The notes below the pieces were generated by a model, which had not been told where the DNA came from, did not search any database, and was given only the letters and a program-made list of their open reading frames with translations. A stretch of 64,000 bases of DNA from Whitmania pigra. Its lineage: Eukaryota; Annelida; Clitellata; Hirudinida; Haemopidae. Each line of letters opens with the position of its first letter. The first letter of the stretch is position 1. Below are positions 728-56,657 of this stretch, piece by piece. The position numbers and the translations under genes are program-made. The DNA lies in NCBI GenBank assembly GCA_021613335.1, contig JAJTWR010000404.1, forward strand, positions 56,001-120,000, written 5' to 3'.

Positions 728-3700
728 GTTGGTATCAGATGATGATGGTGATGATGATGATAGCAGTGGTGATGGTGGTGATGATGGTGATGATGATGAT
801 AGCAGTGGTGATGGTGGTGATGATGGTGATGATGATGATAGCAGTGGTGATGGTGATGGTGATGATGATGATGATGATGATGATGATGATGATGATGATG
901 ATGATGATGATGATGATGATGATGAGGATGATGATGATGATGATGATGATGACGACGACGACGACGATGATGATGGATGATGATGATGATGATGATGATG
1001 ATGATGATGATGATGATGATGATGATGATGATGATGATGATGATGATGACGATGACGACGACGATGATGATGATGATGATGATGATGATGATGATGATGA
1101 TGATGATGATATACCGTGATATGGTTCTGATATTGATGGTGATCAATTGCGTCGCGCTCCAAAGGCTGTCGATAACGTAATGATCCTCGTCGACGTCGTC
1201 ATCATCATCATTATCATCATCATCACCTATCAATCGAGTTGACTTTTCAACCGTTAATTGCGGCGTCGTCGTCGTCATGGCAACCGGAATAAATCCATAA
1301 TGGAGCGATGCCGGGATTAATTGAAGCCTTGTAATCAAAGTCATCAATTGCGCTTAATAAATATTCATTAACAATAAATATAATTATAATAATTAATTAT
1401 GGTTAACGCGATGGTTACGATGATGAAGATGGTGATGATGTTGGTGATACTAATGAAATGCAATATCATTCATAATTATATTCAATACCATTCACAATTA
1501 TGTGATGATGATTATGACGACGACGACGACGACCATGCTGCTGCTGCTGCTGCTGCTGCTGCTGCTGCTGCTGATGATGATGATGGTGATGCTGATGATG
1601 ATGATGATGATGACGACGATGATGATGATGATGATGATGATGATGATGATGATGATGGTGATGTTGATGATGATGATGATGATGATGATGATGATGATGA
1701 TGATGATGATGATGATGATGATGATGATGATGATGATGATGATGATGATGATGATGATGATGATGATGATGATGATGATGATGATGATGATGATGATGAT
1801 GATGATGATGATGATGATGATGATGATGATGATGATGATGATGATGATGATGATGATGATGATGATGATGATGATGATGATGATGATGATGATGATGATG
1901 ATGATGATGAATGATGATGATGATGATGATGATGATGATATGATGATGATGATGATGATGATGATGATGATGATGATGATGATGATGATGATGATGATGA
2001 TGATGATGATGATGATGATGATGATGATGATGATGCTGATGATGCTGATGATGATGATGATGGTGATGATGGTGATGTTGTTGATGATGATGATGATGAT
2101 GATGATGATGATGATGATGATGATGAATGATGATGATGATGATGATGATGATGATGATATATGATGATGATGATGATGATGATGATGATGATGATGATGA
2201 TGATGATGATGATGATGATGATGATGATGATGATGATGATGATGATGATGATGATGGTGATGATGGTGATGTTGATGATGATGATGATGATGATGACAGG
2301 AGGCTGACGTGGCTGTCGCTCCCTTAACCATAACCTCCATCAGAGAGAGGGTCATCGACTTTAGCAAACCATTCATGAACCTCGGCATCAGTATCATGAT
2401 CAAGAAGCCGGAGAAACAAAAGCCAGGTTTAATTTTAATAATATTGTTATTAATACTTTTGTAGTTATTATTATTATAATTGTTTTATAAGTTAATTTTA
2501 ATAATATTGTTATTAAAACTTTTGTAGTTATTATCATTCATATGTATATTAATTTTAATAATATTGTTATTAATACTGTTGTTGTTATTATTATCATTGA
2601 TATATATATGTTAATTTTAATAATAATAATAATAATAATCATAATAATAATAATAATAATATAATAATAATAATAATAATAATAATAATAATATCATAAT
2701 ATTTATTTGTTTGAAAACACCTTCTTTAGTTCATCAATTTCACAATATATGCGCTCGAGTGAAGTGATAAATTTAATTTGATCGTCCACGTCTTCTTTGG
2801 TTTTGAAGACCTCTATTGGTCGGATTGTCTAGGGTTGAGTGGTTAACTACTAAATTATGAATGTGGTTCCGATTATTATAATTATTATTATTATTATTAT
2901 TTAAATCAATTTCAATTTTAATTTAAATATTGAATTCATTAATTATTATTATTTATGATGATGATGATTATTGTTATTATTACATTATACATAGCGTAAT
3001 TAGTAATAATAATTATTATTATTTTTGTTGTTGCTGTTTTTGTTAGGATTTATATCATCACATTATTCATGATGGTTGTGATCAATGTTTCCTTGCTGTT
3101 GAAAACGCCTTCGTTAGTATATCAATTTCACAACATAAACAGTAATAAACCTGTTTCAGTGGTTAATCTCACCGTGTTTATCAATCTTAGATATTATATC
3201 ACATACTTACTATCCAGCCTTCCCTACAAAGAAAAACAAAACAAAACACATGATTATTATTGATGTAAATAAAGTGCTTCATTAATTTTTATTATTTAAA
3301 CATTTATTTCAGTAGTTACAAATCGTTAAAATATGATCAATAATTCAAACTCAACAATACATGATAATAATAAAATAATATTATTAATGATATTTAATTT
3401 ACGAATAACAAATCAGTGTTTATTTAATTAAATAAATAGCAATTATTAGACAAAAATGCCATTAAACTAATAAATCAACTAAAAACACCTTGATTTGGTG
3501 AATCAGACTTAAATATAAGAACATGGCCTGTTCCTTGAGCGGCATGTTTGGCACGATGTTTTTTTTTTGAGCCCGTTGAGGTTCAACTGTACAAAGTGAT
3601 CGAGTGTGGTGATTGGACGAAATGTCTTGTTTCACGTTTTGATTTTAAAATTATCGTCAGTTAGTTCTTTAAAGTTCTCTCACAACGAGCTGTAACTAGG

Positions 3701-6700
3701 CAACTCGTTAGTAAAACAAGAATTTAATTATTAAAATTAATTTGGAAAACACGAGTGAATGAGACGCAAATAAAGGCAGGTTGGGATTAGGAGGAGCACA
3801 TACATTTACAGAGGCTTTCATTGAGATCCACTGGGATTCGAAAAAAATTTAAAAAAAACAGGATAATTTTTGTGGAATGCTTGTGGAAGTAGTTCTAATT
3901 TCACCTGGAAAACGAACAGAACTTACAAATCATAACTAAAATGAAAAACACCTTGGATTAGTGAATATCTTGTAAATAAAAAATAAATAACAGGTTTCAA
4001 TAATAACATTATCAAGAGGAACTAGGTGAGTTTTTGAGGTCCTATGCGGCTAAGCATGAGTGATGGGAAATTGAGGATTGAAGCTAAGAGCTCCAGAATG
4101 TTTTTTGTGCTAGGATTAATAACCAATCAATTAATTATTTGTTGATAACCAATGCTCGATAAGTGAAATAGTGAAATTTAAGAAATATAAATTCTCACTT
4201 CAATAACTAGACGAAAACGAAAACATGGTTTGATTCAGCATATAATCAGGATTTATAGTTTTAAAATAGTGAAAATCACGGACCTTTGAGTTTTAAGAGC
4301 ATTCATGCATCCATCCTTCCATCCATCCATCCATCCATCCATCCATCCATCCATCCATCCATCCATCCATCCATCCATCCATCCATCCATCCATCCATCC
4401 ATCCATCCATCCATCCATCCATCAATCCATGCATCCATCCATCCATCCATCATCCATCCATCCATCCATCCATCCATCCATCCATCCATCCATCCATCCA
4501 TCCATCCATCCATCCACCCATCCATCCATCCATCCATCAATCCATGCATCCATCCATCCATCCATCCATCATCCATCCATCCATCCATCCATCCATCCAT
4601 CCATCCATCCATCCACCATCCATCCATCCATCCATCCATCCATCCATCCATCCATCTATGAATTCATCCATCCAACCATTATTTACAAAGAAAACTCAAA
4701 AATAAATTAATTTTCAATAATCGAGGCCCACAATTAATTATTTGTCGATAATAAATTAAGAATCAATAAATAAATAACAGGCAATAGTACGAAACAAGTT
4801 CAACAAGATTGATCATCTGACTAGAATTTAATTAATAAAAATTATTTGGGAAACACCTTGGACGAGTGAATGAGACGAAAATAAGCATAAAATAATGGTA
4901 TTGGGAGATGCGTACAAATTCAAATGTTTAAACGAGGAATTTTTTAAGGACCCTCGGGGTTCGTCAAAAAAAAATAAGAGAAAATGGCTCGCTTGAAAAT
5001 GTGTGGAACTGGGTCTAACTTTCCCTCGAAAACCAGCAGAACTTACAAATTATAATTAAAATGAAACCATCTAGGAGGAGTGAATATAAAATATAACAAA
5101 AATATAAATAAAAAATACGACATGGATATTTAAAAATTAACTAAAACGTGTTTCTATGGTGGACTAAGTATGAGCGAATGGGATTTGAGGATTGTTGACC
5201 TGCTTAGTCCTGCAGACGTCCATCATTATTTTAGGAATAATTAAAGTTAGAACCTAATAATAACATTAATAATAGAAATAATAATTAATTAATTAATTAA
5301 TATAATTAATACAATAATAATTATTATTATAAATTCATATAATTAATATAATAATTAGAGCATTAATTATATGTTACTAATTATTATTATATTAATTAAT
5401 TATTATTATAATTAATATTATTATAAAAAAAGTGATCAAGTGTTTCGACATATGTTAATTATTATAATTAATATTATTATAAAAAAAGTGATCAAGTGTT
5501 TCGACATATGTGAAATTAACAGAATAATATTATTAATGATAATTAAATTGCGAATAGAAAATTACTATTTATTTAATCAAGTAAATAATAACTATTACAT
5601 AAAAACGCGATTATACTAATAAATCAATTAATAACACCTTGATTTAGTGAATCAGACTTAAATATAAGAAGATGACCTGTTCTGCCGCAAAATATTTTTA
5701 ACACATTAATGACCAACCAATCAATTAATTATTTATTGATAACCAATGCTTGATAAATTAAATATTGAAAGTTAAGAAATATAAATTCTCATTTCAATAA
5801 CTAGACGAAAACGAAAACATGGTTTGATTCAGTATGTAATCAGGATTTATAGTTTTAAAAAAGTAAAAACACCACAGACATTTGGGTTTTAAGAGCAACT
5901 CAAAAGTAAAAGTTATCAATTTTTCATTTGATTTTTTTGGAGCCCTTTGAGGCTCGACTTGAGAAATGTTTTGTTTTAAATTAAATTAATTGTTTTTATT
6001 TAAAAAAATATGACAGTTGGTCATTTAGACTTGCACCAAGAACATACCATTAAAGGTTTCAATCATGTTCACCAATATTATTAATTTTACCATCATAATT
6101 TTATCTAAATTATAATTAAGATTAATTAATTAATTATATATTATATATATTATAATATATATTACAATAATTATAATAATAATTATATTATATTAATATT
6201 ATATTATTATTACCTACAGTTTCAGTGGTTGTTTCCATACAATAGCTTTTGAAGCCCCATTGGGTGGATTTCTGAGATTAATGTTATTTATGTAAAGGTT
6301 GATAATATTTGTGAAAATGATGATGACGATTATTATTATTATTATTGTTACGTTGGTTATTATTTTTGTTGAAGTTATTATTATTATTATTATTATTATT
6401 CACGGTGATAATAATTATTAATATGTTGTTGGATTTGAAAAACACCTTTGGTAGGATCATCATTTTCAAAATATACGTTCGAGTACCTCGATAACTGTTC
6501 AAATTGAGGATTGTAGAACAAATTGTTTTGAGGTCCCATAACGGGCGAATTGTCTGAGATGGCGTGGTTAACTACTAAATTATGGATGTGATTCTGATGC
6601 TGACGACGAAGACGATGATGATAGTGATTACGATGACATTGATTATTTTTTTTATTATTATTATTAAGTAATATATAATATTTGTAATATTATCATTGTT

Positions 6701-56428: not shown

Positions 56429-56551
56429 TTTTTATTATTCATTTTATTTTATTAATGGTAATGTTATTATTATTCTGACAATATTTTTAATTCCAAACAT
56501 AAAACAAAAGATTTCTCCCAAATACCATCCTTGATCATTTTACATATTATA

Positions 56552-56657
56552 GTTGAGCCAAAAAGCTCCAAAAATATCCATACTAGATAAAAAGACTGTG
56601 GCTGAACAGGCCATTCTAACATATTTACGTCTGATTCACTGAGCCAAGGTGTTTTTC
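56552..56657 (-). repeat. Module type A
   Basis: gttgagccaaaaagctcc (loop altered), minus-strand T-run ATATTTTTGG, core tactagataaaaagact, conserved gtggctgaacaggccattct. Confidence 0.55.

What the first reader, a model, noticed from the sequence alone, without database searches (positions are those of the whole stretch)
2714..56657. A multi-type family of >40 modules sharing one layout: AAAACACCT - constant block - variable core - T-run+GG - hairpin
At least ten types with different sequences (A, A', B, B', C, D, E, F, J, K) repeat the same order of parts over ~100-130 nt, in both orientations, in receptor introns and across a 40 kb geneless region. The T-run followed by GG/GA (AATTTTTTGG, ATATTTTTTGG, GATTTTTTTGG) and an immediate stem-loop resembles the Sm site and 3' stem-loop of Sm-class snRNAs. 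In the type A constant block every frame has stops. I know of no described animal repeat or RNA family with this structure. Inference: a family of small structured RNAs, or mobile copies of them.
Basis: partly seen in the sequence, partly recalled or inferred. Interest (0 to 1): 0.9.

Follow-up and report, generated by a model that had tools for sequence, protein, structure and literature searches.

The report
Clustered snRNA genes with hypervariable 5' ends
In an unnamed animal genome, one stretch holds about forty short DNA units that carry the same promoter element, at the same spacing, as most of the animal's own U1 and U5 splicing-RNA genes, and that, in the families compared, differ most between copies in the roughly 20-30 bases just after the predicted start of transcription; they are likely genes for a diverse set of small U7-like RNAs whose changing front ends would pair with other RNAs.

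Summary
The modules are real: 45 exact AAAACACCT in the window against 0.82 expected. The decisive finding is what AAAACACCT is. In the same 178-Mb genome, ACACC lies exactly 56-57 nt before +1 in 31 of 34 distinct U1 upstreams and 5 of 7 U5 upstreams, though in neither of two U2 upstreams. So the "constant block" is an snRNA-type promoter, not RNA. In type A, copies are near-identical up to about offset 56, where U1/U5 start, then turn nearly random. The variable core ends at an Sm-like T-run+GG and a hairpin with modest covariation in type B. The layout recurs with other sequences on contigs C89, C58 and C7. Predicted product: a 55-75 nt Sm-class RNA with a hypervariable, unstructured 5' end of mostly 17-36 nt, laid out like U7 or an engineered U7-SmOPT antisense RNA. 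That they are snRNA-type genes is well supported; that the 5' ends are guides is inference. No targets found, with weak tests; a 3' box was not shown; no expression data. Rivals: motif-driven piRNA-like precursors, spliced-leader RNAs, Pol III RNAs, mobile elements.

The parts
46277..46378 (-). Exemplar type A module: PSE ACACC at 46378, predicted +1 at about 46322, variable core 46322-46300, Sm-like run 46299-46294 (context AATTTTTTGGAG), 3' hairpin to 46277
2717..2821 (+). module
3485..3584 (+). module, type A-like
3948..4064 (+). module
4853..4962 (+). module
5869..5955 (+). type A hairpin with atypical PSE and 7-nt core; doubtful
6442..6546 (+). module
12174..12298 (-). module with UUCG-like hairpin
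17867..17982 (-). module, type A
22775..22876 (-). module, type A (recent copy of 50014)
23361..23463 (-). module (recent copy of 50598)
25143..25252 (+). module, type B
25765..25870 (-). module, type A-like
26729..26832 (-). module, type A
27461..27576 (+). module, type B
27830..27935 (+). module with GGCCTTAAGAGGTCC hairpin
28254..28359 (+). module, type B
29044..29150 (+). module, type B; flanks 98-99% identical to 54871, core 71%
29405..29519 (+). module, type B (three-copy core)
31574..31682 (-). module, type A
32563..32688 (+). module
34793..34896 (+). module, type A; core has no GT
35586..35677 (-). module, type A-like
36267..36374 (+). module, type B
37553..37666 (+). module
38363..38476 (-). 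module, type B (three-copy core)
39445..39555 (-). module
42244..42352 (-). module, type B
42918..43036 (+). module, type B
46003..46128 (+). module; hairpin assignment uncertain
46654..46765 (-). module, weak hairpin
48512..48630 (-). module with GGCCTTAAGAGGTCC hairpin
48861..48965 (-). module, type B
49913..50014 (-). module, type A (recent copy of 22876)
50497..50598 (-). module (recent copy of 23463)
50951..51059 (-). module, weak hairpin
52132..52234 (-). module, type B
54391..54504 (-). module, type B (three-copy core)
54758..54871 (-). module, type B; partner of 29044
56060..56183 (+). module with variant PSE (ACATCT)
56555..56652 (-). module, type A

Best explanation
The modules carry the promoter element and start-site spacing of most of the host's own U1 and U5 genes, followed by a variable core, an Sm-like site and a 3' hairpin, and are likely small Sm-class RNA genes whose hypervariable 5' ends would act as base-pairing guides, like natural versions of U7-SmOPT antisense RNAs. 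Shown by sequence: the shared PSE and spacing, the AT-rich box, the boundary of variation at the predicted +1 (sharp in type A), the Sm-like site, the hairpin with modest covariation in type B, and the local clusters. Inferred: binding by SNAPc and transcription by Pol II, a capped RNA of about 55-75 nt, assembly with Sm proteins. Inferred with less support: the single-stranded 5' end of mostly 17-36 nt pairs with target RNAs to block or redirect their processing, and the repertoire grows by local segmental duplication followed by fast change of the guide part.
For: ACACC lies 56-57 nt before +1 in 31 of 34 distinct U1 and 5 of 7 distinct U5 upstreams of the same genome. Modules are 90% A+T at offsets 28-31, where five of six U1/U5 examples checked have an AT box. 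In type A, per-offset identity among 6 distinct units is 0.67-1.0 before the boundary and 0.13-0.67 after it; over 20 pairs core identity is 0.50 (shuffled null 0.45) against 0.81 near upstream, 0.92 promoter, 0.83 Sm+hairpin and 0.74 downstream. An unanchored profile over 337 same-family pairs falls to background (0.28) by offset 57. Other clusters behave alike: C89 promoter 0.86, core 0.44, hairpin 0.83; C58 upstream 0.91, core 0.55, hairpin 0.88; C7 core 0.41, hairpin 0.88. Cores show no excess folding (mean z +0.12, n=77). Type B hairpin: 95.2% of cells paired, 3 of 7 pairs with a change on both sides (reached by 9 of 500 shuffles), covariation score reached by 1 of 500. Type A sites such as AATTTTTTGGAG nearly equal the engineered SmOpt site AAUUUUUGGAG quoted in PMC11232981.
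Against: Neither of two distinct U2 upstreams has ACACC at 56-57 (one has none, one at 43), and two of three U6 upstreams have it at 63. No target found: one three-copy core has no other place in the genome within 3 mismatches of 23 nt; 56 of 65 distinct cores searched together gave 12 matches, all to themselves, so 44 did not even find themselves; in 288 kb of fetched DNA with modules masked, complementarity of 65 cores is at shuffle level (11.97 against 11.73; 2 of 65 above all 25 shuffles, both low-complexity). A 3' box modelled on U1 is not enriched downstream of modules. Type A covariation alone is weak (score reached by 47 of 500 shuffles), and related rows can beat shuffles without structure. 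Five recent duplicate pairs keep their cores (0.89-1.00). The T-run and hairpin were search criteria, which inflates paired percentages; 24 of 71 PSE-like sites in the window lack them. No transcript data.
Confidence: 0.5

Rival explanations
1. Motif-driven piRNA-like precursors: an snRNA-type promoter fires short capped RNAs, the T-run and hairpin pause or end Pol II, and the variable core is processed into a small silencing RNA, as in nematodes.
For: Nematode piRNA promoters derive from snRNA SNAPc elements, yield ~28-nt precursors and sit in clusters or introns (PMC6436959, passages). Core median is 26 nt; modules are clustered, lie in both orientations, and cores differ.
Against: No strong base bias at +1 to +4 across 81 modules, though the start is known only to 1-3 nt. 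A hairpin with modest covariation and an Sm-like consensus are not needed for short pausing transcripts.
Confidence: 0.2
2. A very diverse set of spliced-leader RNA genes: the variable 5' part would be a leader exon donated to mRNAs, the rest the Sm-bearing intron.
For: Same gene type (PSE, short RNA, Sm site, hairpin); the leader would be at the 5' end (recalled).
Against: 13 of 81 cores have no GT at all and 36 of 81 no GTA/GTG, so a splice donor is missing in many.
Confidence: 0.07
3. Pol III genes with U6-like promoters that end in the T-run, giving 20-40 nt oligo-U RNAs; the hairpin is downstream DNA.
For: Two U6 copies have ACACCTCTGACAGAGGTC or ACACCTCTGACGGAGGTC and a TATA box, similar to type B blocks; runs of four or more T are usual Pol III terminators (recalled).
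Against: ACACC is at 63 in those U6 copies but at 56-57 in U1/U5, and type A varies from 56 on; U1/U5 also have AT boxes near offset 28; hairpin covariation argues that it is transcribed.
Confidence: 0.1
4. Decaying or neutral repeats, or a mobile element that carries an snRNA-type promoter; the core is simply unconstrained.
For: Type A homology spans about -335 to +176 with similar ends in several copies; some copies have lost the hairpin or hold a tRNA-like insert.
Against: Locus-bound rather than dispersed; cores are less conserved than flanks on both sides, while promoter and hairpin are kept.
Confidence: 0.13

Closest known systems
Sm-class snRNA genes (U1, U5)
   Same: PSE ACACC at 56-57 nt before +1, AT box near offset 28, Sm-like site, 3' stem-loop
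   Different: Family members conserve the promoter and 3' end but not the 5' end of the RNA; U1/U5 are conserved along the RNA (recalled; their copies here match the Rfam models)
U7 snRNA and engineered U7-SmOPT antisense RNAs
   Same: Predicted small RNA: single-stranded 5' pairing region, Sm site, one 3' hairpin; some sites nearly equal SmOpt AAUUUUUGGAG (PMC11232981, passages; U7: PMC7026596, abstract start and passages)
   Different: U7 pairs with histone pre-mRNA; here dozens of 5' ends with unknown targets; the Rfam U7 model finds none in the genome (not decisive)
Nematode motif-driven piRNA (21U-RNA) genes
   Same: snRNA-type promoter, tiny RNAs, big clusters and introns (PMC6436959, passages)
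   Different: No Sm-like site with 3' hairpin is mentioned in the passages seen; no start-nucleotide bias here
Spliced-leader RNAs
   Same: Short Sm-class RNAs from snRNA-type promoters (recalled)
   Different: No fixed splice donor
Herpesvirus saimiri HSURs
   Same: Sm-class or snRNA-type RNAs that pair with other RNAs (PMC6763288, PMC13158664, search listing and start of abstract only)
   Different: A few viral RNAs, not a large host gene repertoire

Membership tests
Sm-class snRNA genes | Host PSE at the host spacing from +1 | tested here: met
   U1 31 of 34 and U5 5 of 7 distinct upstreams have ACACC at 56-57; U2 0 of 2; type A boundary at 56 in 5 of 7 units
Sm-class snRNA genes | Sm-like site (U-run, then G and purine) followed by a 3' stem-loop | tested here: met
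   37 of 74 PSE sites against 3.9% of random positions; modest type B covariation
Sm-class snRNA genes | 3' box downstream | tested here: inconclusive
   U1-derived motif not enriched, diff/se 0.79, n=79; U1 3' flanks are themselves diverse; some C7 copies look similar by eye
Sm-class snRNA genes | Sm protein binding and trimethylated cap | not testable with these tools
   needs RIP-seq and cap immunoprecipitation
U7 snRNA | Match to the U7 family model | tested here: inconclusive
   0 of 1 genome, but the model also rang in none of the controls
Spliced-leader RNA | Splice donor after the leader | tested here: not met
   13 of 81 cores lack any GT, 36 of 81 lack GTR
Nematode-type piRNA genes | Fixed start nucleotides of the small RNA | tested here: inconclusive
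   No strong base bias at +1 to +4 over 81 modules, but the start position is uncertain by 1-3 nt; no RNA data
Described Rfam RNA family | Score above gathering threshold | tested here: not met
   0 matches in the window
Mobile element | Copies dispersed through the genome | tested here: not met
   9 of 9 type A and 53 of 65 type B hits on this contig
Mobile element | Terminal repeats and target-site duplications | not tested
   ends of the repeat unit were only seen in BLAST matches

The most novel reading that the evidence does not exclude
An animal has evolved a repertoire of over a hundred antisense snRNP genes: locus-specific promoter-and-hairpin chassis that carry fast-changing 20-30 nt guides, a natural U7-SmOPT system used to regulate its own transcripts or to attack those of parasites.
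Probability: 0.3. Interest if true: 0.95.

Novelty: new variant of a known kind. Interest (0 to 1): 0.85.

Why it matters
If true, a class of RNA known for near-invariant splicing parts has been turned into a diversifying guide library in an animal. It would be a nuclear antisense system laid out as in engineered U7-SmOPT vectors, and another example, besides nematode piRNAs, of snRNA promoters driving a large variable small-RNA repertoire. It is directly testable by RNA sequencing.

Tried and rejected
Rfam at gathering and at relaxed thresholds: nothing that I judged relevant. U7 family: no hit, not decisive. 3' box from U1: not enriched. 5' stem in the core: no excess. Splice donor in the core: not fixed. 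Targets: cores against own genome, one core with 3 mismatches, complementarity in fetched DNA: one search was flawed, because for minus-strand modules the best match was the module itself; one search repeats it with modules masked and finds shuffle level. Organism: one LINE protein search gave mostly unnamed hits and a few named arthropods and a jellyfish; the species stays unknown. The genome-wide spacing control with a shifted gap did not complete. Nine answered literature searches listed no title on such a family; only up to 15 papers of each were shown, and the library lacks most subscription papers.
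Full report
WHAT IS THERE. The window is C354:56001-120000 of an unnamed animal assembly of 178 Mb in 381 contigs. AAAACACCT occurs 45 times, 0.82 expected. In the 124 kb around it, 37 of 74 AAACACCT/GAACACCT sites are followed 64-112 nt later by a T-run plus G[GA] and a hairpin of -3 kcal/mol or better, against 3.9% of 3000 random positions. I list 41 modules in the window, kept from 47 detected among 71 PSE-like sites.

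THE KEY COMPARISON. U1, U2, U5 and U6 genes of the same genome were located with Rfam models. ACACC lies 56 or 57 nt before +1 in 31 of 34 distinct U1 upstreams (42 hits) and in 5 of 7 distinct U5 upstreams (8 of 10 hits examined). AAAACACCT is therefore the proximal sequence element (PSE) of this animal's U1 and U5 genes, and the 'constant block' of the modules is a promoter. It does not hold for U2: of two distinct upstreams one has no ACACC and one has it at 43; two of three U6 upstreams have it at 63 together with a TATA box. Modules are 90% A+T at offsets 28-31, where five of six U1/U5 examples checked have an AT box.

WHERE VARIATION STARTS. Type A copies align from about -335 to +176. 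In 7 type A units chosen because they keep the motif CAGCC[GA]CA (6 distinct units in the per-offset profile), identity is 0.67-1.0 at each of the 30 offsets before the boundary and 0.13-0.67 after it. The boundary is at offset 56 from ACACC in 5 of 7 units, and at 52 and 59 in two that have indels in the promoter. High identity just left of the boundary is partly by selection; the drop to near-random is not. Over 20 pairs: upstream -100..-4 0.81, promoter 0.92, core 0.50 (shuffled null 0.45), Sm+hairpin 0.83, downstream 0.74; far upstream averages 0.65, with a wide spread. Without any anchoring, 337 same-family pairs from 89 sites decline from about offset 48 and reach background (0.28) by offset 57; 9 recent-duplicate pairs were left out, and including them hardly changes the profile. 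So over all types the last 8 nt before +1 also drift; the sharp edge is seen in type A.

REPLICATION. Other loci have different constant blocks and hairpins but the same behaviour: C89 (4 units, 6 pairs) promoter 0.86, core 0.44, hairpin 0.83, upstream 0.66, downstream 0.65; C58 (5 units, 10 pairs) upstream 0.91, promoter 0.84, core 0.55, hairpin 0.88, downstream 0.76; C7 (4 of 6 fetched units, 6 pairs) upstream 0.65, promoter 0.73, core 0.41, hairpin 0.88, downstream 0.68. In each of these families the core is the least conserved part. Three further small groups of C58 units were fetched but not measured; in one of them the core is shared within two pairs and the hairpin is weak. Replacement is fast but not instantaneous: five recent pairs keep cores at 0.89-1.00, while the pair 29044/54871 has flanks 98-99% and core 71% identical. 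Over 23 pairs with upstream identity 0.8-0.9, core identity is 0.54 against 0.425 for unrelated cores.

HAIRPIN AND SM SITE. The type B hairpin pairs in 95.2% of cells over 27 rows; 3 of 7 pairs change on both sides (9 of 500 shuffles reach this) and the covariation score is reached by 1 of 500. Type A over 19 rows is weaker: 87.1% paired, score reached by 47 of 500; two rows were visibly misaligned. Rows were chosen with a hairpin in mind and are related, so this is modest support. Cores do not fold more than shuffles (mean z +0.12, n=77), as expected for a single-stranded guide, but also for unconstrained sequence.

GENOME SCALE. The type A block has 9 exact hits, all here. The type B block (up to 1 mismatch) has 65 hits, control 0, of which 53 are on C354 between 32.7 and 386.8 kb. 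AAACACCTYNGYTWNG has 139 hits, control 17. AACACCTN{68,98}TTTTGG has 460, control 259, an excess of about 200, and its capped list points to further clusters on C58 and C7. Of 40 places fetched, a part shows the full layout and others are decayed or chance matches. These look like local families that grow by segmental duplication, not dispersed repeats.

MECHANISM. Most likely each module is an snRNA-type gene that makes a 55-75 nt Sm-class RNA with a variable 5' end. Shown: promoter identity and spacing, boundary, Sm-like site, hairpin. Inferred: SNAPc and Pol II use, Sm assembly, and guide action. The layout equals the engineered U7-SmOPT design (antisense, AAUUUUUGGAG, hairpin; PMC11232981, passages). 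The main rival is a nematode-like piRNA precursor system (PMC6436959, passages), with which it shares the promoter origin, clustering and a core median of 26 nt, but not a start-base bias.

AGAINST. No targets, no 3' box, U2 does not share the spacing, no expression data, species unknown.

Noticed in passing
window 9346-10323: Exons of an AMPA-type ionotropic glutamate receptor
   Followed up: partly
window 18818-20026 (-) and 40390-41414 (-): LINE reverse transcriptase and endonuclease fragments
   Followed up: partly
window 48008 (-), L093, L105: A tRNA-like short insert (SINE-like by eye) sits inside or beside modules and PSE sites
   Followed up: no
L020 (C350:119000-125100): Tandem array of a variant U1 gene with 5' end ATACTTACTTGG, mostly 385-bp spacing
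   Followed up: no
L054-L061 (C103, C141): U2 arrays on two short contigs lack the ACACC element upstream; these contigs may be unusual or foreign
   Followed up: no
window 1572-2296, 52377-52967 and others: Very long trinucleotide repeats (TGA, TAT)
   Followed up: no
window 21060, 35402, 55750, 56181: ACACC sites that are the reverse strand of type A 3' ends, not promoters (56181 belongs to module 56060)
   Followed up: partly
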